Below are positions 1 to 15,450 of a stretch of DNA of 64,000 nt, in pieces. Source of the stretch: Flammula alnicola (taxonomy: Eukaryota; Basidiomycota; Agaricomycetes; Agaricales; Strophariaceae); the NCBI GenBank assembly GCA_015499995.1, contig JADNRV010000004.1, positions 434,001 to 498,000 on the forward strand. The letters are read 5' to 3'. A model generated the notes under the pieces. That model ran no database searches, was not told the DNA's origin, and was given only the letters and a program-made list of their open reading frames with translations. Position numbers and translations under genes: made by a program. Each line of letters begins with the position of its first letter. Position 1 is the first letter of the stretch.

Positions 1-1971
1 CCGCAGTAACCGTTAAAGTGGGTGTGCTATCACCAGCAATAGACTCAGGCATGGTATCGGAGCAACGTGAAACTTGCGAGATTGGCTGAGTCGACTCAGA
101 TGTAGTATTTGAGTGTTTAGCTGCAGGGGTAATGTCGCTGCTCATAGTAGTGGTCGATGTCATTCTGGCATTGGATACAATGGACTGGCGCATGCTATCA
201 GAAGTGTGGGGTGAAATTTGCGAGATCGGCTCAACATGAGCCGGTTCGGGTGCAGGAGGTGGGTTGGACTTGGGCGTAGTGTTGGAAGCATGATGTGAAA
301 CCGGCTGAGTGTGAGCAGCTTTGGTTGTCAATGGCGCATGTGTCTTGGCAATAGGAGGTATGTCAGACTGGGATGTGGCATCAGCAGAGTAAGCGGTGGC
401 ATGTGGGATTAGCCCAATATGAGCAGGTTCTGGCGCTGATGGCGGTTGGCTGCTGGTCATCAGAGCATCAGATTTTGGGATGTCGTGCAGAATTGGAGGA
501 ATGGCGTCTTCGACTAGAGGCGTAGGGCTACCATTGACAAACCGGAAAGGAAAACTCTTGGCCGAAGTATTCAAAAATTGAATGAGTTGATAAACGCTAG
601 CCGGCTCGCTGAGATATTCCTTTGGGTTCTTTAGCAGTACGGGTAGCGTGAAGGTCTTGATATCATAGAAATGGGATGGATTTTCTTGGATTTCCTTCCA
701 CGGAATCGAAGGTGCTGCTGCGCCCGAAGAAAAGGAGGATTCTGCAATGCTTCAATTAGAACAGGAGGTAACCAAAGTAAGAAAGTGAAATACGCACCCC
801 AGATAACCGTAAAGTAGTCTTGAAGAACCTGGACAAGCTGGACAGCAGACGCAGTAGTGAGGTTGACGTTTGGAAAGACTGGAATCCCGTCTTCATTCAT
901 GGGGATGTTATTGACGACGGCTGCTGGCTTGCCTATTTTTGATGTCAGAATGCAGCCGATAATGTGCGAAACGTATGGTACTTACGTGGAAGCAGTATAT
1001 CCGCATGTGCCTTCCAGGTGTCTCGCCACTTGTCTTGATCCTTAAGCTCGTTCAGTATTTCTTTCCCAGTTACAAGATTTTGACCAGCGTAGATACTGTT
1101 TGGTGTTTCAAATCAGTTAGTAGGCCACAACAGCACAAGTTCTTACTTACGTTCCTGCAACAACTCCATCCTTTGCATTACGAAAGCCATATGAGAGGCT
1201 CATAACGGATGATCCCAAATAGCCTTTGGCGCAAATGTTCTGAAGAGCATCCGCAATAAGAAAGGGAAATTCTTTCTGGTTTCTAAAGTACAGTCAGTTA
1301 TATTGCATGAAACAACATGAGACAAGCGACGTACGAATATGTATCCTTGGCCAACTCCTCTGTCTTCGACTCCCAATGCTTATGATCGGCCACCTCCCAC
1401 AGTTTCGCGAGCGCTTTCTTCTTCAGCCCACCTCCACGAAGGTTCGGATACTCTGACTGCATGGCCTCCATTTCAGCCTGAATCTCCTCCTCGTGCTCTT
1501 GGGCGAACAGCTGACGCGGATGAAAGTCGCCAGCAAATAACACAAAGGTACGCAGTGCAGAGTTCGAAGAGACTCTCTGAACTGCTGCAGCAGAGGATGA
1601 GCCCGAAGCGCCTTGCTTTTCCTTTGCCTTCATGTTGTTGTTGAAATAGTTGGTGAAGGTGCGCACAATTGCCTTGCAGAGTTATTCTGATTAGTATAGC
1701 TGGTAATAAAAGAGCGGCATATGAAGGGAAAACATACCTTTTTCCATGCAGGCAATGGCTTCTCTGGCGTCGCAATATCTTTGAATAAATCAGAAGCCAG
1801 AATTGACAGAGCTGTTTCAGTTTTCCATGTGGAGAGCTCATTATTATACTTCTCCAGCCCAGGATTGATGCGGTGAACCACTTTTTCGAATGCAGGCAGG
1901 TAGCTATTCAGAACCTTCTGCTGTGCATCAGAGAATATGAAACGCGTGGCTTTCGCACCCCGACCTGGCAT
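1..1971 (-). CDS. Unrecognised spliced gene, 3' end outside the window
   Basis: I do not recognise this protein. It starts at ATG 1971 and reads through six exons that join in frame: 1971-1738, 1672-1335, 1282-1151, 1095-986, 932-798 and 741 to the window edge. Every intron is 45-66 bp with GT..AG ends. At least 563 residues are encoded. The first 80 residues are helical and lysine-rich; a KAIVRTFTNYFNNN stretch follows exon 1. The middle carries a WKAHADILLP stretch. The last exon is a low-complexity tail rich in Ser, Thr, Pro and repeated EPAH and QPISQ units, likely disordered. It diverges from the gene at 2460 across one promoter region. Its position beside a TET/JBP dioxygenase and a KDZ transposase suggests transposon cargo. 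The frame is intact, so it may still be expressed. Confidence 0.7.
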
Positions 1972-2459
1972 AGTAAATTGAAGTGTCGTTAGAAGGAGAT
2001 GAAAAAATGTTAGGGCGTACCATAGAGTTTACTTGAAGGCTTTTTATGACGCGCCAAAGGATGCCACTTCGACGTTTCAACGACTATGTTTGCTTTGGCC
2101 CCACGGCATAGTGGCTGGCATGGCCCTTCAAAGCCAGCATGTCCAAGTCAAACACCGTCGGTTGGATACATGGTAAACAGGGATGGGGCCATGGGCCATT
2201 GAATTGACCGCTTTTCTGCTTCAATAGGCTGTGCCAGTAAGCGCGTGGTTGACCATTTCTAGCAAATACATGACGTCACAAGTGATTCAGCTTTGAGCGC
2301 TTTTGAGTGCCTGTAAATAGTAAGCGCCTAGGTGCGCACACACAAGCGAACCGACATGCGCTTTATGGGGACTAAAATTTATATATAAGTCGCATTTTTA
2401 GTGACGAGAACGCAACACCTTCCGGTTTCCCAGCATCCTTCCACACCGAACTCTCCAAC
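1972..2459. promoter_or_regulatory. Shared divergent promoter region
   Basis: These 488 bp separate the start codons of two head-to-head genes and contain no credible frame of their own. A TATA-like TATATAAG lies at about 2382, roughly 70 bp before the plus-strand ATG at 2460, where a fungal TATA box would fit. A C/T-rich stretch follows before the ATG. Joint regulation of the two genes is inferred from the arrangement only. Confidence 0.5.
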
Positions 2460-3493
2460 ATGGTATTTCAATCCCCAAGTGAACGCGCAGCCTACCTTAA
2501 TGATCGAGTTCCTCCGATGAGCAACGAGGACCTTAAATGTCCCAATGGTTACCCCCATTATGAAGGTCTTTGTATGGGAAAGACGGATCGGACTTATGAT
2601 GACATTGGGCGCCGCTCAACATTTGTATGTATATTTAATTTCTGCATCCTGTAGGTCGCCAAGTTCTTCATCTCTAACTCAACTATTGCAGTGCGGCGGA
2701 CCCAGGAGCTCCCGCTGTGGGCGCTTTAAGACTCCACGACATTCCCTTCAGGTTATCAAGGACCTTCACGAAGCCATGAAGATTTATGATGACCAGCAAA
2801 GGGAGAAACGTGCTGCTCAAAAGTCGAGTTCAGCTCCCACCACTCCCACCAAGACACCCGACAAGACAAGCAAGCCCATTGTGCATAGGCATGATCTCAT
2901 TAGTATTTCAGTCTTCTATTCTTAATATGTCTTTAACTGACAGCACTTTTGCAGGTCGTATTGAACTTTCTGAAGAGGATTCGGTTAAGATCTATGTCTA
3001 CTTGACGGTAAGCCAACTACATAGTCTATTAGTAACCTAGGGATTTTAACTATAATTGCTGACATGGCATTTTACTTTCGGATAGTCCAATGGCGAGAAT
3101 TTTGAGCATACAGGCAAGCTCTCCAATGGTACCTACGCCTACCTTGAGGATGCTGTGCTTCGTGAAATGTCAAAATTTCCCATTACTTCCTGGACCGTGT
3201 ACGACATCATTCAGCGCGTTTTTGTCCCGATTCCTACCTTCAGCCGTCAAGACGTGCGGCCCAATGAGTTTTTGATCCTCCGATCCTCTGCTGTTCCACT
3301 CGAAAAATGTGATGGATTGGAGGATTTGATTGACGAGCTTCACATGCATTTCACGTCATTGATCAAGACCATTCAAAAGGATAAGGGCACAGGTGCTCGC
3401 CATAAACGCAAAGTGTCGGAAGGCTCCCTGGAAGCTGGCCCCTCGCAGAGCCGCCAAAAGAAGGCAAAAATTGTTATTGATTTGACGGTTTGA
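2460..3493 (+). CDS. Unrecognised Cys-containing small nuclear-type protein
   Basis: Four exons join in frame: 2460-2624, 2692-2902, 2955-3007 and 3086-3493, giving about 278 residues. Residues 20-65 contain spaced cysteines in LKCPNGYPHYEGLC and a later CGGPRSSRCGRF, the second spanning the exon 1/2 junction. This spacing is loosely like a small zinc-binding module such as a GRF finger, but I cannot confirm that. A Lys/Ser/Thr-rich linker follows (residues 80-125). The C-terminal half has a folded-looking region ending in GARHKRKVSEG and RQKKAKIVIDL, a likely nuclear localisation signal. It diverges from the gene ending at 1971 and converges on the TET/JBP gene with a 191-bp gap. The second donor (2903) was chosen because only it keeps the downstream frame. 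Function unknown. Confidence 0.65.
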
Positions 3494-3684
3494 CAAGTTG
3501 AACTTTAGTTTATTTCCCCCTCTTTCAAATGTACTGTCATATGGAGTAACTAGCTTGATATTAGATACGCTGTTCCAAGAATATATGTATGTTTCAAATT
3601 AGGATAGCATGTGTACATAGCAAGGCATTGAGTCCATTTAGAAACACTAACTACCACCCTCATCCACCCACCGATGTGCGACAC

Positions 3685-5120
3685 CTATGCCTGCAGCTCT
3701 TCAATGGTGCTGAGCATCTCCAAGCCACGAATCCAGCGAGTGGATTGGTCATGCATTCGCTGCGCCTTCTCCTCCTCGCTCGCATTCGCCTCCCAATCAG
3801 CCTGCTTCTGACATCCATTGTCGACCCAACGGAAGAGCCCTCCGGCGCTGTATTGTGCAAAGGAATACCTGGTTTCGTTGTTGGCTATTGGAGTGTTCGA
3901 GTGCCGGATCATGGCGGAGGGGATGAGGATGGTCGATCCAGGAGGAAACCGGATGATGTACTTCAGATCCCAGAGCACGAGATGCCCTCCACGGTCCGGG
4001 TTGAAGGAGCCCAAGGCCGTGATGGCACACCATCCCCAGGTGAGGTTTGCGTAATCACGGTGGGGGAATGAAACAGTGCGAGGGCCAAAGTTAATGGTGG
4101 CAGAGGCGAAGGCGGACTTAGGGAAGGTGCGACAGATGGTGTCAGGTGACCAGCGCACAAGTTCGTCTATTGTGTCTTGGTAGTAATTGTAGAGCCGGGG
4201 GGCGACTGTCTCGAAGGCGGCTGGATGAATGTTGTTAATGAGGGCTGTAGCGGGGTAATAATTTTACTTACAGTTGGTGAATCCGACGATGCGTTTGAAC
4301 GCCGGTTGCTGCAAAAGCTCGTTCAGGATTGGGGTGCATGCTGGCGAATTCAATCGCATGCGTGGAGATGCCTGCCCGCCACCATGGGAGAGCCCAATTT
4401 GATAGGCTGGGAATGCGCCGCGACGGTGGATAGTGTGCTCGGGTGGAGCAAGCTGCTGCCGAGCAAAGTGGATGGCGCGTGATGCATCAAGGTTCACTTT
4501 GCCCCAGTCGATGCACTTGGGAGTGCCGGCAAGAAGACCAATCACGCGGTTATTTGAGACAATGATGCGCGAGTCCCTGAGGAATGGATTGTCAGCTGCG
4601 TGGTCCATCGAGGCAGAATGGGGCGGTGCTTACCTGCCGGTCCACTCGACTTCGTTCATGCTGAACTTATGCTTAAGTTCATCCGTACTCCAGTCCCTCC
4701 ACTCCTCCTTTCCATCTCGGAGACCCACCCATGCCGGCTTCGTCGTTTTGAAGTCCTTCTCCATGTCAATGGCAGGGTGAAGCGGGTTTGCCGAGGCAAT
4801 AGGCCTGTACTTTGCAGTACAGGCTTTGAGGCGACTGCCAGACAACTCCTGGATTGCCGCCCGCTTCTTCCTGCGCTCTTCTCGTTGGCGGACATTCTTC
4901 CAAGCACGATCTTTCATGCCAGGAGGTCGAATGGGCGCAGCGATGGTTGAGGGGTGGGGGCAGGTGCTTGGGGTGCGGTCAAAGGCAACGAGGGGGGTGG
5001 GTCGTCCTCATCGAGGTCAGAAAGGTCAGAAATGTCAGAAAGGGTGAGGTCTGCATCCATGTGCTGGACAAGGTGGTCCTCGAGTTTAAAGAATGATGGC
5101 GCATGCAAGGGGGATCCCAT
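3685..5120 (-). CDS. TET/JBP-family 2-oxoglutarate/Fe(II) dioxygenase
   Basis: Predicted to oxidise 5-methylcytosine (or a related base) in DNA using Fe(II) and 2-oxoglutarate. The C-terminal exon carries the fungal TET/JBP core. It has an HxD iron-binding motif in FPHRDYANL (about 4050-4070), the GWCAITALG and GGHLVLWDL strands, FPPGSTILIPSA, the distal histidine in RHSNTPI (about 3898), and the 2-oxoglutarate-binding arginine in ETRYSFAQY (about 3868). GGLFRWV follows. Exons are about 5120-4634, 4576-4272 and 4244-3685, about 450 residues. The N-terminal part is acidic, then has a basic KDRAWKNVRQREERRKKR stretch. The start is uncertain: ATG 5120 is the first in frame, but an upstream exon is possible. 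A one-base shift in a C-rich run near 4995-5005 is needed to join the acidic part to the basic part, so it may be slightly broken. Linkage of such genes to KDZ transposons in basidiomycetes is published. Confidence 0.85.
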
Positions 5121-5582
5121 ATGAATGTCGCCGGGCAAAGCACCACGCGCCGCTGGTGAGCCGGTATCTGCACAGCATATGGAGAATTTAATGAGCTTAA
5201 TAAAAATATTAAAGAGATGTAGCGCCCTTCAGTCGCGCACACGACCAAAGCAGGGCGAGGGCTTCACACAGCAGTTCCAAGGTCGGATCCGCCAAGTGAA
5301 GTCCTCGACCAGCTCAGATAGTGCACTCGATGGGAGGGCGACATATGGTACCAAAATGACCCACTTTGCATCTGTTGAGGTGTTCGCAGCATTTGCAGGC
5401 AGAGGGATATTTGAATTTCAGACAACTTATTGAACTTCGAGAATCGACGCGACCGTTGATTGTATCACGTGCCCAGTGGCACGGTCTAATCCGTTGGACG
5501 CTGGTAATATATAGCATTGTCCTTATTCTCAATTGCTGACTTGACATACCGGTCTTTTCTTGACCTAGACCTGCTGCTCACT
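5121..5582 (-). other. Upstream region of the dioxygenase with a possible cysteine-rich exon
   Basis: No certain gene. On the minus strand an open frame (about 5547-5314) contains a compact cysteine cluster, ACKCCEHLNRC then GTICRPPIECTI, with at least six Cys. A usable acceptor (TGTGCAG, near 5168) would extend the dioxygenase frame upstream through TGSPAARGALPGDIHMG. I could not find a clean donor joining the two, so I do not merge them. It may be a lost or alternative 5' exon of the dioxygenase. Confidence 0.3.
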
Positions 5583-6110
5583 CTCGGAGTCGCTCAAGCA
5601 CTTGCACCTCGAGCTCACACTGATACCCCTCCTCTCTCGGCATTCGAGGGCTCGTCGATCTCGGAAGGGTCTCAGTCCAGCATCGACCTCTCCCAGCTCA
5701 ATGTCGCCCTCTCCAACGCCACGCACTCAATTCCATGAACAGGGCTCGTGCTCGTGCTCGCGGCACAGGTCGTCGTCAGCGATATTCCAAGGCACACATC
5801 TCTCGCCCTTCCGTGTACGAGACCATCGAGCAAGGGCACAGCCAGAGGAACCACTTGGGATTGCGATCCAATGTATGTATTTTGACTATCTGCTGTCGTG
5901 TCTTTTTCTTATTGACGATTTCTTTAGACTTTCAAGCCCCAGCAGAACCAGCGGGCATGCAAGCACTTCTCGAACGCTCGGTGCAAAGCTACGGCCCACT
6001 TCCATCTGATCTCCGTCCACGTCAAATGCGCCCTCGAACCTCGTCGCGGCCACCGCCCTAACCCCAAGCACGGATCTCGAAAGGGACCCTCTCGCCAGAG
6101 CGGACCCGGA
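5583..6110 (+). pseudogene. Captured host-gene fragment, source unidentified
   Basis: Two overlapping frames read like one protein after a single frameshift. The first gives GSSISEGSQSSIDLSQLN and ALSNATHSI; the second continues with an arginine-alanine run and SRPSVYETIEQ. A GT..AG intron (about 5873-5933) joins RSN to TFKPQQNQRACKHFSN and then a basic tail ending at a TGA near 6116. Retained introns suggest DNA-level capture. Source gene not recognised. It lies between the dioxygenase and the transposase, beside other captured pieces, so it is probably non-functional cargo. Confidence 0.4.
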
Positions 6111-6248
6111 TCTTGACTGCTATCCTCGACGACTCAAATTCCAGCAATCGCCCACCGAGACCAACTGCAGCTCGCACGACACCCTTGTTGCTTTGCTGGG
6201 CGTCCTCTTACCATCTTCGCAAGCCACATACGTGGGATCTAACGCGGC

Positions 6249-7020
6249 ATGGGTGCTACCAGCGACCAAGACCCTTTCGCTCTCTTCCACACTCCGCCGC
6301 CCAACGAAACTCCCGGAGAACGAGCAGCTCGCCAGGCAATCAGATCGACGAACAGCTGAAGGCAGAGCGTTGGGCGTTGAAAAAGCAGAACTATACGGTT
6401 CGCGTGCTCTTGCTCGGTCAACCTGAGAGCGGTAAGTGCTCATCTAGCGCTCACTGTCAATTCTTATTACTATAACTAACTGGATCCTACGTTAGGTTCT
6501 CGCGAGTTGCCTCGATGATATGAAGATACTCTGGTCAGATGAAGTTGTAAAGGTCGTTTTGAAGAAACGAAGAATACGGCTGGAAGATTCGGCTGGATTG
6601 TGAGTCTTTCGTGGTGTCGTCTTCAGCCTGCTACTTATGACATGCCGTTGTTTCTTAGATGACCTCGACCGCATCGCAAGGCGGGATTACAAACCTTCTG
6701 ATGACGATGTTTTTCTGATGACGATGTTTCGGGCTCGTTTAAGGACGTTGGGTGTGCAAGAATATCGAATAAAGTTCGAAGCCAACTCCAGTGCGTTCGC
6801 TGGTGCGTTTTAGCTACTACTACTTCCCTACGACATAGCTATTTACCTCAGCCATTCCAGGCGGTATCGGAGGAGATGCTGGCAGGGACTGGCTCTTGTA
6901 TGGCGTTGGCGGATCTCGGACGATGGTACGTATGCATGTTGATCGAATGAAACCCCAGCTCATTCCACTCAATCTAGCACCATGCTTGGGTACCGTATTT
7001 CGATTTCCTCAAAAGCGCAG
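6249..7020 (+). pseudogene. Captured G-alpha (heterotrimeric G protein subunit) fragment
   Basis: This is the 5' part of a gene of the expanded agaricomycete G-alpha family. ATG 6249 opens MGATSDQDPFALFHTPPPNE, the usual start of these large G-alphas. After a frameshift comes IDEQLKAERWALKKQ and the P-loop approach VRVLLLGQPESGK. Later exons give ILWSDEVVKVVLKKRRIRLE, DDLDRIARRDYKPSDDD, RARLRTLGVQEYRIKFEA, DWLLYGVGGSRTM (the DVGG switch region) and HAWVPYFDFL. Introns are kept (for example after PESG and after SRTM), so it was copied as DNA. It is broken by a frameshift near 6340, a small internal duplication near 6705, and loss of everything after the switch region. The normal DVGG Asp is Gly here. 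It cannot encode a working GTPase. Confidence 0.75.
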
Positions 7021-7157
7021 ATTTCGTGTAACTCCTAAACGGTGCTATGATTTGTGCGCTCTTTCTATTTTTCTACTTATATCTTTCGGAAAGTCAATTT
7101 TATCATATCCCCATGGACCTTTATATTGTTGCTTCTCCATGTATATATTTCCAAGCA

Positions 7158-7325
7158 ATAAACGCCGCATTGACACCTAGTGACTTGCAGCACTATCTTG
7201 GCACTATCCGTCATCTTTTCCAACTTCGAGCCAACATCTTCTCCAGGAAGTCCCTTCAAGCCGAACTGGGGCAGGTTGAAGCAACGCGATTAATAGTTGT
7301 TCCTGCAAGTCTGTGGGTTGATTGA
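7158..7325 (+). pseudogene. Captured exon fragment, source unidentified
   Basis: A frame of about 55 residues reads INAALTPSDLQHYLGTIRHL, then RKSLQAELGQVEATRLIVV, then a stop at 7323. It has the regular composition of a real protein exon and is preceded by an AT-rich intron-like stretch. It follows directly on the G-alpha fragment but is not part of G-alpha as I know it, so it is probably a separate captured exon. No function proposed. Confidence 0.35.
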
Positions 7326-7578
7326 TCACAGGGATGTTCTGTAAGTGCCAGCGGCAGCGCTTGCCAAGGTACACACTTCTCTGCTTGTGGCCACTCCGCT
7401 TTGAACTTCGATTGGGCCTTGATATTTCGCGTGCATTGTTCTAAGGGCCACTATGGCTTGTAAACACGGAGTTGATATGTGAGTGGCCTTATTCAAGCGA
7501 TATTCTTAAGACTTTATACGCATTACCGTTCAGAAATCCCTCACCCCTTTTCTCCTCCCTTAGGACCCACTTTCCGAT

Positions 7579-10500
7579 ATGTCGACACTGAAGCTACGAG
7601 AAAAGAAGATGGCGCAGCTGAGGGAAAAATATGCGAGTCGCATCCACGAGGACGATCAGACGGCCTACTCTGAATATACAGTCATTGCTGGTACGGCACA
7701 TTCATACCATCCCCTGCTTTTCCCATCGCAAATTCTCCTTACCTTAGGATCAACTGTGACAACTTCGTTGTCAGCTTTGCCACTCCCGCCACAGCCACTT
7801 GAACAAATGGATCTCCCGAAACCTTCTTCTACTGAGACTCCAAAATCGGAGAAAACAAAGGTGGCGCGTACACAGGTTCGTCGCCTTCCATGATCCATCC
7901 CCTCTAGCAGTTCATTCTCAAGTTTATTACAGAGATCTGAGCAACTCGGAGAATTCGAAGATAATTTTTCTTGGATCTTGGACTGTATGTTCAAGCTTCA
8001 AGCCGACAGATCGATTGGCGAGGACTGTCCGTGCGGTACTCCAGGAGCAACAAGAACAACGAGGTGTTCCGACTGCATGTTTGGCAGCCAACCAACCTGC
8101 TCCAAATGTTTTATTGCCGCTCATCACGCCAAACCTACGCATTGGGCCGAGAAGTGGGACTCGGACAAGGGATTTTTCATTCGACATGACATTTCAACTC
8201 TTCGTCCACAGGGGTACTCCATCCAATTCGGGCATCTTGGCGTAGTTTGTCCCTATACTACAGAGGAGAATGAGGTCTTCTTTCACATCATAGACTGTAA
8301 CGGCATCCACAATACCAAGGTTCGCTTTTGCGGCTGTCCAGGTTCCTTGGATCGCGCAAAGCAGCTTCTAGCACATGGCCTATTTCCTGCAACGTTGGCG
8401 CGGCCCCAAATGGCATTCACATTCCAACTTCTTGAGACATTCCACATCCTTCACCTCGAATCGAAAATCGCAAAGTATGATTTTGTTGGTGCTCTTCGAC
8501 GACTAACTGACAATGCGTTTGTGCATAACGTATCTGTAAGCACATTTAGTTTGCTTTTGTAATTGAATGTTAATTGTTCAAATATTAGGACCCCTATCCC
8601 CAATTTCGGGTCGTGACCCAGGTCTGGACCGTGCTTAAGGCAATGATGCGTCTTGGACAGTGTCACGGCATTGACCAGATTCTACCAAACCGTCGTCCTG
8701 GAAACCTTATTGTTTTCTGTCCGGCATGCCCAGAGCCTGGCGTGAATATGGAACCAGGTTGGGAGCGTACTCCTAATCACCTCCGGTGAGTTTCAAAATT
8801 GTAGAATATCCGGCCTACTCTTCTCAAACTTGCAACATCCCTAGTCACCTCAATCAGACAAGGTTTACAGCAGATGGAAATTTTCATTTGAACCACTTCA
8901 TTAAGAATAACGATCCAGAAGAAATCTCTCTGTTTCGAGGCAATGCATACTTTCCGAAAGATGAGAAGTTTAAACCCTACATAGCGAGAGTCTCTAGCGA
9001 TATTCCTGAGGTACGAGGAACATGGTTCACATTCAGCACAATGCCTAATCGTGACATTTGTCTAGAAATCGCACCCCTGCAGCCATCTGAGCGTCTTGAA
9101 GAATCGAAAGGAAAAGAAGTTTGACTACATGGATGTATCGGGTGCTTCCCAAGTTGCATGCAGCCATGTTATCATCAAATCAACAGTCGATCTTCAGCTT
9201 GGAGAGCGGTATGTTGTTTTATTCTGCCATTTTTAACTCTTGGTAACGAAATACATTAGGTTTGCGAACACCGACTACGCCCTAGCGCACGCAATACAGC
9301 AACATCGACCAGTTGAGAGGGGCACAAAGATGAACTGCGACCATCTCATGTCATACGATATTGCATGTGCCTACCACATCAACATCGTTGACCGGTTTAA
9401 GAAGAATTTTCCCGAGCTCGTTGCCGACGTGGAGGCAATTAGGTGGCTTATACCCTTGGTTCACATTCAAAACCACAAGGATAACTGCACCTATCTGCAC
9501 TCATCAGCATACACACCAAGCGCTGGGCATTTCCACGGAGAGACAGCCGAAATGCCTTGGTCGGAGTCAAATCAACTTGGGCCTCAAACAAGGCAGATGA
9601 ACAATGGACAGCGAAAGGATGTTCTGATCGACAATGCTGGGGATTGGAACTGGAAGAAGACCGCAAACATGAGTAAGTGGCTTTACGTCTGCAGCGAAAT
9701 CTCAACTAAATGGGCTATTCAAATTTTAGCGACGACTCTTTATAATGAAATCATTCGAGCGAAAGTTCTAGCAGATGAAAAGCGGGAGGCATTCAAGGCC
9801 TTGTGTGAGCTGTATCCTGGCCGCATAGAAACTTGGAATAACCTTGATCGCGAACGTCGGGTAGTCTCGAAGGGAAAAGAGGTTGAGTGTGTTTATCGAC
9901 ACAGCCAGAAAAAAGGTAAGAAATTCTGCTCCGACATGGTTGGCTATTATTAGCATATTAACAGCTTTATATCTTCGACAGAACCTTCACATACCAGAAT
10001 TTACAACCTCCTCATTGACGAACTTCAAGCGAAGATATCAATCGGAACAATAGCGCCAGAGATGGGTTTAATCCCTTCATTTCTGAAGGATGGATTGAGT
10101 ATCTTGGAGACTAAGTATGTTTTTCAGATGGGACCTTAGTATTTGAAATTAAAATTTATCTACTTTGTAGGCGCCGCATAACTTCTAAGCTGTCGACACA
10201 GCAGCATGGTGTGGCAGATCCCAAGTTGAATGATGAGATCTCTAAGCAGCGAAGTAAACTCCGTAACCAGATCAACAAGTGGAGACGCGTACAGAGGAAA
10301 ATTGCGCCTCAGGTGGGCGATCATGTGGCCAAACAAGCCTTATCATTCAAGACACTCGACTCCACTGAAGACGAAAACCTCTTCCTTCCTTCCGACTTCT
10401 CCCTCAGTGATCGCCTCTCACTCAATTTAATCCAACTTTCCGAACTTCAGCGACGATATTTTCAAGGATATGCACACAATTACAAGGATCAGGTCCGCTT

Positions 10501-11797
10501 GATTTCAAAATCGCTCTCAGCGCTGCGTGTAGAGAAGAAGAAAAATGCCTACGGTCAGGACCGACATACTCGGGCCGCGGCGAGGATCTCGGATGTCGAA
10601 CATCGCTTGGACCTCGCAATTGAAGACTACAATGCTACACGTAGTGCCTTGGTTTCATTGGGCATGAGCGAGGATGATCCGGAATTCCCTCCTTTGACAT
10701 TGAAGGATACATTTCGAAAGAGGACGAACACTAAGCGCGCGGTTGGTGATACCTATCGTATGGATGGGCTCATCTGGACAAATACGGGCGCAACAGGTGG
10801 CGCTCGCGCATCTCAAGCCGCATCTAGTGGTGAATGTGCCGTTTCCATTGCAACTCAAGGTTCCAGGGCAAAAAAGCGTGCGTATCAGTATCACAGTATT
10901 CTTTGCCAGTTTTTTTATCTCAATTACCTTTCAGGGCAATATGTTGCAGGGAAGGCAGGCCATCGTAAGGGAAAACGTCGCCGCCTCAATGGTGACGAGC
11001 CTGGTGAAGCTGGCAGTGCAAAAGACCAGAAGAAAAATCGAACAGGTATGAATCTCAGTGTTTTTTTTTACTTTCTTCATAGATTCATTTATTCTAATAC
11101 AGACGGTTGGATCTGGCGTCCCACTCCAGGCACTGATCTTACGGAGAAGGAGCTCGCAGAGTGGATCGAGGAAGGTAAAGCTATTTTTACTTACATGCAT
11201 CTAACGCTTACATTTTCTGCTAGGTGACCGCGTTCAATGGTTTCGTGCAGAAGCCGAGATGCAGCGCTGGCAGGAGGAGCTTGAAACTCTTCAAGCAGAT
11301 TTCATGCGCTGCATCCGCACCTTTCAGAAAATGTCTGAGGTCTGGAAAGATCTCGCAAAGTCAAATTCCGGTGAACCTGGAAAAACCGCATATGCTAGAA
11401 AAAAGTCCTCGATGTTCACCGAAATGGCGATCCGTGGTCAGCAGCAGTTCGAAAACGCCGGGTACAGCAATCGCGTCCTCGAGGAAGGCAAAATCCTCGC
11501 TGATTACCTTGAAATTGACCGCAGTGACTTGGAAAAGAGCCTTCAACATCTTCTTGTAGGCGTATCTTTCTCTGTCATTTTGATCTGCTCCTAAAAATCA
11601 TCCTGTTTAGCAACCATTGCAGTCAGGCACGGAAAATATGAATGGTAGCCATGATGGGCTCTCTCTTCATCCAAACGACGAGTCGTCTATGGATACTGAC
11701 ATGACCTCTGAAGGGATGTCGGGCACGGAGTCAGAGGTGCGTCCATTTTTGGCCAGAATACATCCACTCTACTGATATTAGCTCCTAGGAGGATTAA
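7579..11797 (+). CDS. KDZ transposase with CxC2-type cysteine cluster
   Basis: Transposase of the Kyakuja-Dileera-Zisupton class, expected to cut and join the ends of its own element in the nucleus. Fifteen exons all join in frame with GT..AG introns: 7579-7690, 7748-7875, 7933-8535, 8589-8785, 8845-9010, 9066-9208, 9260-9672, 9730-9915, 9982-10114, 10171-10877, 10935-11045, 11103-11174, 11224-11555, 11611-11736 and 11789-11797. This gives 1145 residues with no stop. Residues about 110-155 form the cysteine cluster (CPCG, RCSDC, CSKC, then HH and THW). The core has MSYDIACAYHINI, with the first likely catalytic Asp, then HIQNHKDNC, AGHFHGETAEMPW and KDVLIDNAGDWNWKK, all family landmarks. The C-terminus is helical and charged, with basic GHRKGKRRRLNG. 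It looks potentially functional. It lies downstream of, and on the opposite strand to, the TET/JBP gene. Confidence 0.9.
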
Positions 11798-12120
11798 ACT
11801 GTCCAAGGTTAGGTGTTCAAGTGGCAACAAGTTTTAATCTCCTCCGTCTTTAATCAATGTTTTAATCTCATGTGATGTTTAATCACCTACGTGTTTAATC
11901 AGAGCCATGTTTTGCACCTGTCATTATTTACCGGCTGTAATCAGTATTTAAATCTATGTTTAATCACTGATATAAGTAGATTTTTTGCTGTTTAAACACT
12001 TTTATGCACCGTCTGTACTACCTCTAATGGTATCACTACTTTAACATATGTTTTAAACGTAATTTAAACTGTTTAATCACACCGCCTTACTTAAGGTCTG
12101 ATGTTTAATTAATATCCATA
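11798..12120. repeat. Cluster of TTTAATC motifs, possible subterminal repeats of the KDZ element
   Basis: About nine copies of TTTAATC or its close variants lie between 11830 and 12115 in both orientations, irregularly spaced, in otherwise non-coding AT-rich DNA just after the transposase stop. Short clustered motifs near element ends commonly serve as transposase binding sites. The matching left end is outside the window, so the terminus cannot be placed. Confidence 0.4.
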
Positions 12121-12470
12121 TGGTTACGGATGGTACTTTAATATGTACGGCGAGCGCAGAATACAATTACAATCTACGAGATGATTTCATTACTTTTACC
12201 AAACTCTAACCTGACCCATAGAACATGACTGTTATTGAACCTTTACATGATGTTACTGGGACATATATTTGAGAAAATGTTGCCATCAAATCAGTCTGCA
12301 ATCGTCTGACCGATACATGACTGAAATGCAGAAACCGGACTCCGAACGAACATATACGTGAGTCAGCCGGACTTTTGTGATTTACTGAGAGTCACTAGTC
12401 AATTTTGATTGACTTTTGACTGATCAAACACGCAACAAACACGCACTTCAAAGCAGCCGCACATGACCCA
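12121..12470. other. Non-coding spacer
   Basis: No gene or clear repeat seen. The right end of the KDZ element must lie here or just before. The stretch CTAGTCAATTTTGATTGACT (about 12396-12415) is a short inverted repeat but is not clearly an element end. Confidence 0.4.
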
Positions 12471-14394: not shown

Positions 14395-14850
14395 TCAAAC
14401 AAAGAGTTGTAAGATGAAAGATGTAAGATGTAAGAAGTTAATGAAGGAACTTCTTATTAGATAGACAGAGAGACGTTGAGCGTAGTTAAGTAAGAAGTAA
14501 ACAATGGAACTTCTTATTAGACAGAGAGATGTAGAGCGTAGATGTAAGAAGTAAATACGAAGGGACTTCTTAATAGACAGAGAGACGTAGAGTGTAAAGA
14601 CATAAGAAGTAATACGAAGGGACTTCTTAATAGACAGAGAGACGTAGAGCGTAAAGACGTAAGAAGTAATACGAAGGGACTTCTTAATAGACAGAGAGAC
14701 GTAGAGCGTAAAGACGTAAGAAGTAAATACGAAGGGACTTCTTAATAGACAGTAAGACGGAGAAGTAGCGGTATACTTCTTATAAGTGACGTTAAGTAAT
14801 TCGGAAGACGATAAGACTAAAGAAGTAATGATATACTTCTTTGAATTCAA
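14395..14850. repeat. Tandem repeat, about 57-bp unit, about six copies
   Basis: Each unit contains GGGACTTCTTAATAGACAG, then AGAGACGTAGAGCG and GTAAGAAGTAA. The middle copies (about 14560-14760) are nearly identical and the outer ones diverged. The minus-strand open frame through it is a by-product of the repeat. Confidence 0.85.
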
Positions 14851-15133
14851 TAGACGATAAGTTCAACTCTTAGTTGAACTTGTATATACAGATAGACTTA
14901 GATTCGCGCTAGTCAATTGATAACTTTAAGTGGTAATTGGTATGATGATATTTCAAGGGGAAACGGTCAGTTATTTATACTAATTCTATCTAGTGGCTGT
15001 GCTAGGACTTTAATGTGCTTTGAATAAGCGCCGAGAGTGTTATTGGTAAGATTATTACTCATCTGCACAGTTATGATTATCAAGCGCGCAGCTTTGCACA
15101 GTCAAGCTTACCAAGCCCTCAGTTATGCTTATT
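14851..15133. other. Spacer between repeat blocks
   Basis: AT-rich, no gene seen. A short inverted repeat, AAGTTCAACTCTTAGTTGAACTT near 14860-14882, is present but has no clear role. Confidence 0.35.
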
Positions 15134-15450
15134 GAGCGCTTATCAAGCACATGGGTATGATTACTGAGCGCTTATCAAGCACATGGGTATGATTACTGAG
15201 CGCTTATCAAGCACATGGGTATGATTACTGAGCGCTTATCAGCACATGGGTATGATTACTGAGCGCTTAGCAACTGCTCATGGGTACAGTTTCTTGAGCG
15301 CTTAGCAACTGCACGGTTGTGATCATTTGAGTGCTTACCGTTTGTATGGTTACAGTCATCTGAACACTGAGCGACTGCCTGGATACGGACATCGGAGCAC
15401 TGAGCGACTGCATGGTTACGGTCATCTGAGCACTGAGCGATTGTGCAGAT
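15134..15450. repeat. Tandem repeat, 32-bp unit, with degenerate continuation
   Basis: About four nearly identical 32-bp units containing GAGCGCTTATCAAGCACATG and GGTATGATTACT run from about 15134 to 15265. More diverged units sharing GAGCGCTTAGCAACTG or GAGCACTGAGCGACTG continue to about 15440. No coding potential beyond the repeat itself. Confidence 0.85.

What the first reader, a model, noticed from the sequence alone, without database searches (positions are those of the whole stretch)
1..12120. KDZ transposon that carries a TET/JBP DNA dioxygenase and unknown partner genes
A KDZ transposase of 15 exons with a fully open joined frame lies next to a TET/JBP dioxygenase with its iron and 2-oxoglutarate residues visible, plus two unrecognised spliced genes. 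KDZ-TET/JBP linkage in mushrooms is known (Iyer and colleagues, PNAS 2014). The extra pair of genes may be part of the same system for editing methylation marks on or around the element.
Basis: partly seen in the sequence, partly recalled or inferred. Interest (0 to 1): 0.88.

Follow-up and report, generated by a model that had tools for sequence, protein, structure and literature searches.

The report
Mushroom transposon carrying a TET-like enzyme
This is a complete, apparently recently mobile DNA transposon of a mushroom that carries its own transposase, a putative DNA-bending protein, a small unknown protein and a TET-like enzyme that may strip silencing marks; the type of element is known, but its enzyme belongs to a branch different from the usual one.

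Summary
It starts 834 bp left of the window, ends at 12129, and has 147-bp inverted repeats (96%). Four full copies exist in the genome, all with perfect 7-bp target duplications and all four genes. The host is Flammula alnicola. The left gene is a divergent HMG-box-like protein. It occurs at 7 diverged KDZ loci that lack the dioxygenase, 3 of them with the second unknown gene, so both look like partners of the transposase. The dioxygenase is not the classical mushroom TET: below Pfam's cut-off, without the AG-type residues. In this genome 16 KDZ loci carry its family and 16 others classical TET genes; none carries both. It is under strong purifying selection (omega about 0.08), and differences among young copies are mostly CpG transitions, as if methylated. 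KDZ-TET elements are known; this is a new variant.

The parts
1..12129 (+). KDZ element, the part inside the window; the whole element is C334:433167-446129, 12963 bp
   Evidence: four copies end at the same points
12130..12136 (.). right target-site duplication ATGGTAC; the left copy is C334:433160-433166
11977..12123 (.). right terminal inverted repeat, 147 bp, 96% identical to the left one at C334:433173-433319
11792..12079 (.). right subterminal array of TTTAATC/TTTAATCA motifs; the left array lies in the first 700 bp of the element, mostly outside the window
   Evidence: TTTAATCA: 6 in left 700 bp, 5 in right 400 bp, 0 between; TTTAATC: 7, 8 and 2
1..1971 (-). gene1, 657 aa, 7 exons (continues to window position -336): HMG-box-like domain at residues about 122-200
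2460..3493 (+). gene2, 278 aa, 4 exons, no known family; N-terminal Cys/His cluster
3685..4917 (-). TET/JBP-like 2OG-Fe(II) dioxygenase, 374 aa, 3 exons (442 aa with an N-terminal extension in copy D)
5514..7309 (+). captured host DNA: pieces of a G-alpha gene (6108-7153, two internal deletions) joined to other host pieces; not a working gene
7579..11797 (+). KDZ transposase, 1164 aa, 14 exons, with CxC2 cysteine cluster

Best explanation
A complete KDZ-class DNA transposon of about 13 kb. SHOWN: identical ends in four copies, 7-bp duplications, joined flanks matching uninterrupted sites elsewhere, four genes moving together, purifying selection on dioxygenase and transposase, CpG-biased decay. 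INFERRED: the KDZ transposase moves the element using the inverted repeats and the subterminal TTTAATCA arrays; gene1, an HMG-box-like protein, bends DNA to help pair the ends, and gene2 is a second helper of the transposase; the dioxygenase oxidises 5-methylcytosine on the element and so keeps its promoters readable. The dioxygenase and the G-alpha pieces entered a cargo slot between gene2 and the transposase; only the dioxygenase was kept under selection.
Confidence: 0.7

Rival explanations
1. The dioxygenase is passive cargo, like the G-alpha pieces beside it, and does nothing for the element.
For: The same slot holds other captured gene pieces; its N-terminal extension is out of frame in two copies; the 7 related gene1-bearing KDZ loci lack it.
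Against: 10 synonymous against 2 other changes between copies, while the G-alpha region shows 2 against 12; the family lies within 8 kb of a KDZ at 16 of 43 loci, P about 2e-17 if placed at random, although many of these are near-identical copies and four are this element.
Confidence: 0.15
2. One reading: gene1, gene2 and the dioxygenase form one system for editing methylation marks.
For: All travel together in 4 of 4 copies.
Against: Gene1, and in 3 cases gene2, persist beside KDZ at 7 of 7 diverged loci without either dioxygenase family.
Confidence: 0.1
3. The enzyme is a 2OG-Fe(II) dioxygenase with another substrate (6mA, RNA or protein), not a TET.
For: Pfam Tet_JBP is below cut-off in every member scanned here and absent for the C556 and C123 relatives; no PDB TET matched; weak profile match to classical TETs of the same genome (probability 25.5%, E 7.5e-4); UniRef names some relatives, such as P0044 and P0045, after prolyl 4-hydroxylase.
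Against: Tet_JBP is the top Pfam family in the members that match, best 9.5e-7, and 3 of the 120 listed relatives carry a precomputed Tet_JBP assignment; HxD, H and R align collinearly with AG-type TETs; the H+5 residue is Asn as in human TET2.
Confidence: 0.3
4. The copies arose by segmental duplication, not transposition.
For: None found.
Against: Homology stops at the element ends and each copy has its own perfect 7-bp duplication; joined flanks match uninterrupted sites.
Confidence: 0.02

Closest known systems
TET+ Kyakuja transposons of Agaricomycotina (Kojima 2025, PMC12730594; abstract, sections 1, 3.2, 3.4, part 1 of 2 of section 4, figure legends and found passages seen)
   Same: KDZ transposase with a TET/JBP-type gene in one element; 7-bp target duplications
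   Different: Kojima: 5'-CA..TG termini and no inverted repeats, AG-type enzyme. Here: ends ATAAAT..TTACGG, 147-bp inverted repeats, enzyme with Asn/Cys in place of the AG Gly or Ser/Asp
KDZ-TET/JBP association in basidiomycetes (Iyer et al., PNAS 2014; not held; recalled)
   Same: KDZ with TET/JBP; I recall its abstract naming additional proteins including a divergent HMG domain, which would be gene1
   Different: Could not be checked; the ends and duplications, gene2 and the disjoint dioxygenase families may or may not be there
CcTET of Coprinopsis cinerea (PMC11040006, passages only)
   Same: HxD iron site
   Different: CcTET has Gly331 and Asp337; here Asn and Cys at the matching positions
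HMG-box proteins (HMG-D, SSRP1, Abf2p)
   Same: best structural and profile matches of gene1 residues about 122-200
   Different: no Pfam hit for gene1 itself; the rest of gene1 has no known relative found

Membership tests
KDZ transposon | KDZ transposase domain over the curated cut-off | tested here: met
   161.5 bits against 26.6
KDZ transposon | cysteine cluster CxC | tested here: met
   CxC2 110 bits against 27
KDZ transposon | mobile unit with defined ends and target duplication | tested here: met
   4 of 4 copies; uninterrupted sites
TET+ Kyakuja sensu Kojima | 7-bp target duplication | tested here: met
   rule
TET+ Kyakuja sensu Kojima | CA..TG termini without inverted repeats | tested here: not met
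   ATAAAT..TTACGG and 147-bp repeats; rule
TET+ Kyakuja sensu Kojima | AG-type enzyme: Gly or Ser at H+5 and Asp at H+11 | tested here: not met
   Asn and Cys in the window and in 119 of 120 listed relatives; my search pattern required the Cys; rule
PE-type TET | HxE instead of HxD | tested here: not met
   HxD; rule
PU-type TET | PU-specific residues | not tested
   residues stand in a figure that is not held
Pfam Tet_JBP | score over 34.9 bits | tested here: not met
   19.5 bits; best relative scanned 28.6; 3 of 120 relatives carry a precomputed assignment to a newer version of the model
2OG-Fe(II) dioxygenase | HxD, distal H, 2OG-binding R | tested here: met
   H318, D320, H371, R382 of P0006 invariant in 20 rows, 19 of them distinct
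HMG-box protein | HMG domain | tested here: inconclusive
GRF-type zinc finger (gene2) | C..G..H ... GRR...C ... C | tested here: inconclusive
   pattern shared by two versions of gene2, resemblance recalled; no Pfam hit to a GRF finger

The most novel reading that the evidence does not exclude
The dioxygenase is a further class of transposon-borne TET/JBP enzyme beside PU, AG and PE. With Asn at the TET2 Asn1387 position it is directed at 5mC rather than 6mA, it moved between KDZ lineages as cargo, and in this element it joins an HMG-box helper, gene2 and subterminal motif arrays into a self-unsilencing transposon, while other KDZ elements of the same genome use classical AG-type TET for the same purpose.
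Probability: 0.4. Interest if true: 0.72.

Novelty: new variant of a known kind. Interest (0 to 1): 0.5.

Why it matters
Transposons that carry an eraser of DNA methylation are a clean case of an arms race with host silencing. Here one genome holds two families of putative erasers on disjoint sets of KDZ elements, together with a young family whose copies differ mostly by CpG transitions. That makes two questions testable in one fungus: does the element-borne enzyme act on its own element, and why do different KDZ lineages keep different enzymes? The dioxygenase-free relatives that keep gene1 (three of seven also gene2) are natural controls.

Tried and rejected
Considered and rejected: gene1 and gene2 as partners of the dioxygenase (they occur without it); classical AG-type TET identity; segmental duplication; a working G-alpha gene (2 synonymous against 12 other changes; two internal deletions).

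Led nowhere: gene2 in Pfam and PDB, and its fold without relatives, mean pLDDT 40; most of the gene1 fold; Foldseek against PDB gave no match at E 0.001 or better for gene1; TET in PDB by sequence or profile; a paper on this fungus' transposons. The gene finder failed on the dioxygenases of C556 and C123, so stop-to-stop frames were used. In the small KDZ tree the rows L001 and L002 were read in a wrong frame and must be ignored; it was made from domain pieces, and I rely on the identities instead.

Rows dropped or not independent: the 83 KDZ and 43 dioxygenase loci are my hand-merging by place of 119 and 50 hits; C4 is counted twice among the KDZ, and the tool calls its counts of repeats lower bounds. 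Of the 43 dioxygenase loci 27 have no KDZ within 15 kb; of 26 classical TET loci over cut-off 10 have none; 6 further classical hits under cut-off were left out. Of the 17 matches, two are the window's own flanks and two cover only the right flank; of the 13 that cross the join, seven are about 11 bases shorter than the query. The 7 diverged gene1 loci amount to 3 or 4 families: C60/C176/C612, C97/C568, C201, C4. Of 696 dioxygenase relatives only the best 120 were listed and examined. In one search only the 7996 candidates sharing most words were scored. A simpler count of changes gave lower omegas: dioxygenase 0.06, KDZ 0.13, gene1 0.40, gene2 0.56, G-alpha region 1.92.
Full report
WHAT WAS GIVEN. 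The window is part of a 74.4-Mb assembly of 861 contigs held as G000, at C334:434001-498000. Contigs that carry this element or its relatives have the same lengths (381414, 36550, 807652, 84431) as contigs whose proteins are named Flammula alnicola.

THE ELEMENT. Comparing the window and 20 kb upstream with two other loci gave homology that stops at the same two points. A fourth copy was found with the right inverted repeat and fetched. The element runs from C334:433167 to 446129, that is from 834 bp left of the window to 12129. Its 147-bp inverted repeats are 96% identical, set 6 bases in from the ends. All four copies are flanked by perfect and different 7-bp duplications: ATGGTAC, CTGAGCT, CTGCAGC, GGTTCAT. 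Copies A (window), B (C143) and C (C290) differ by 13 to 29 substitutions in about 12.9 kb; D (C364) differs from them by 292 to 302. With the element and one duplication removed, the joined flanks match 13 other places across the join at 85-91% identity; the best six have 239 bases against 240 of the query, the other seven are about 11 bases shorter. So the element sits in another repeat family, and the join is precise to within a base. The motif TTTAATCA occurs 11 times in the element, 6 in the left 700 bp and 5 in the right 400 bp, none in the 11.9 kb between; copy D has a 56-bp insertion made of further units. The ends are AT-rich, so part of this enrichment is expected.

THE GENES. A small splice-aware gene finder written here gave gene1 (657 aa), gene2 (278 aa), dioxygenase (374 aa) and KDZ. 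Gene1 and gene2 were then found as database proteins of the same lengths at 100% identity as rounded; both stand on the contig of copy C. The KDZ model contained one unspliced 57-base intron (11046-11102), shown by a length change in its T run; corrected it has 14 exons and 1164 aa. KDZ is open in A and, apart from length changes inside introns, in C. It is broken in B (one base) and in D (277-bp insertion and one base); D also has a stop in gene2. The database holds the dioxygenase of copy D as a 442-aa protein. Its N-terminal extension is in frame in C and D but out of frame in A and B by one base of a C run at 4950; the 374-aa part is open in all four.

GENE1 AND GENE2 BELONG WITH THE TRANSPOSASE. 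In the whole genome gene1 has 11 loci: the four copies and 7 diverged ones. All 11 lie 5.6-10.4 kb from a KDZ (start to start) and point away from it. Gene2 has 7 loci, all beside gene1 and on the KDZ strand. None of the 7 diverged gene1 loci has this dioxygenase or a classical TET within 15 kb. The window's KDZ domain is 61% identical to that of C612 and 58% to that of C201, both gene1 carriers, but 31% to a KDZ with a classical TET (C59) and 28% to a KDZ with the same kind of dioxygenase (C123), although the dioxygenases of the window and C123 are 49% identical. The enzyme therefore probably entered this KDZ lineage from elsewhere; loss in the relatives is not excluded. In the related C612 element the interval between gene2 and KDZ holds a Suv3 helicase fragment that C60 and C176 lack.

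WHAT THE DIOXYGENASE IS. It has the iron site HxD...H and the 2OG arginine, invariant in 20 aligned rows, 19 of them distinct proteins. It scores 19.5 bits to Pfam Tet_JBP against a cut-off of 34.9; 9 of the 20 rows hit Tet_JBP at E 0.01 or better, best 9.5e-7, none over cut-off, while 3 of the 120 listed relatives carry a precomputed Tet_JBP assignment. A genome search with Tet_JBP itself finds 26 loci over cut-off, none within 15 kb of any of the 43 loci of the window's family. Sixteen of the 26 lie 3.7-5.8 kb from a KDZ, and 16 KDZ loci, four of them this element, have the window's family; the overlap is 0. Two of the classical loci, read here, have Ser or Gly at H+5 and Asp at H+11, the AG-type signature given by Kojima. 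The window's family has Asn and Cys there in 119 of 120 listed relatives, with the caveat that my pattern required the Cys; the one miss lacks the first His. A profile comparison aligns the two families collinearly, HxD to HxD, but weakly (probability 25.5%, E 7.5e-4, few sequences). Asn at that position is what human TET2 has (Asn1387), where it contacts 5mC and hinders 6mA, according to passages of PMC11040006. The prediction of 5mC preference is inference.

SELECTION AND METHYLATION. Between A and D, with the observed transition bias in the neutral model, the dioxygenase has 10 synonymous and 2 other changes (omega about 0.08, P 1.7e-4), KDZ 44 and 21 (0.20, P 4e-10), gene1 22 and 30 (0.60, P 0.048), gene2 5 and 11 (0.95, P 0.56). 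In a simpler count the G-alpha region has 2 and 12. These tests pool all branches since the copies split. Among the young copies CpG transitions make 10 of 13, 15 of 19 and 23 of 29 differences, and 133 of 292 between A and D. That is the footprint expected of methylated CpG. The element as a whole is not clearly CpG-depleted (o/e 0.85-0.88, flanks 0.93 and 0.76), and I did not compare with non-transposon DNA.

CARGO. Bases 5514-7309 contain pieces of host genes. The stretches 6108-6497, 6494-7003 and 7002-7153 match G-alpha genes on C855, C117, C856 and C54 at 87-91%, with about 0.7 kb of the source missing at each of two joins; the left part matches another family (C259, C812, C10, C612). 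C142 carries the left part and the first G-alpha piece side by side, at 92-95%.

COMPARISON WITH WHAT IS KNOWN. Kojima 2025 (abstract and outline, sections 1, 3.2, 3.4, part 1 of 2 of section 4, figure legends and found passages seen) shows that complete TET+ KDZ elements with 7-bp duplications exist in Agaricomycotina, with CA..TG ends and no inverted repeats; the word HMG does not occur in it. A passage of PMC12477816 says KDZ elements often carry accessory genes in fungi, citing Iyer et al.. I found no description of gene2, of this dioxygenase family on KDZ elements, or of the disjoint distribution in the listings of searches of an open-licence library that lacks Iyer et al., nor in the parts of Kojima's paper that I saw; its supplement was not seen. 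The claim of novelty is therefore limited.

VERDICT. A real, complete KDZ element that moved recently enough for three copies to be nearly identical. The most interesting point is that KDZ elements of one mushroom carry two distinct TET/JBP-type families on separate sets of elements.

Noticed in passing
window 5514-7309: Mosaic of captured host gene pieces including a G-alpha subunit gene (6108-7153) with two internal deletions; nearest joined relative on C142 at 92-95%.
   Followed up: partly
L049, about 4720-5120, minus strand: The related C612 KDZ element carries a fragment of a Suv3-type helicase between gene2 and KDZ (PF22527, E 4e-34).
   Followed up: partly
window 6677 and 8947 (insertion points in copies C and D): Copy C has an 854-bp insertion with inverted ends and a 9-bp duplication AAGGCGGGA; copy D has a 277-bp insertion with inverted ends and a TA duplication, inside KDZ: nested small elements.
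   Followed up: partly
G000, 26 loci such as C59:97570 and C73:101999: Classical TET genes over Pfam's cut-off, 16 of 26 beside other KDZ elements; the two that were read have AG-type residues.
   Followed up: partly
window 12137 and the flank left of the element: The element sits in another repeat family with at least 13 further copies at 85-91%.
   Followed up: no
window 14442-14784 and 15114-15273: Two arrays of short direct repeats, units about 57 and 32 bp, to the right of the element.
   Followed up: no
G000:C645:63342-64084: A diverged relic of the N-terminal part of this dioxygenase gene (83% DNA identity) with stops.
   Followed up: no
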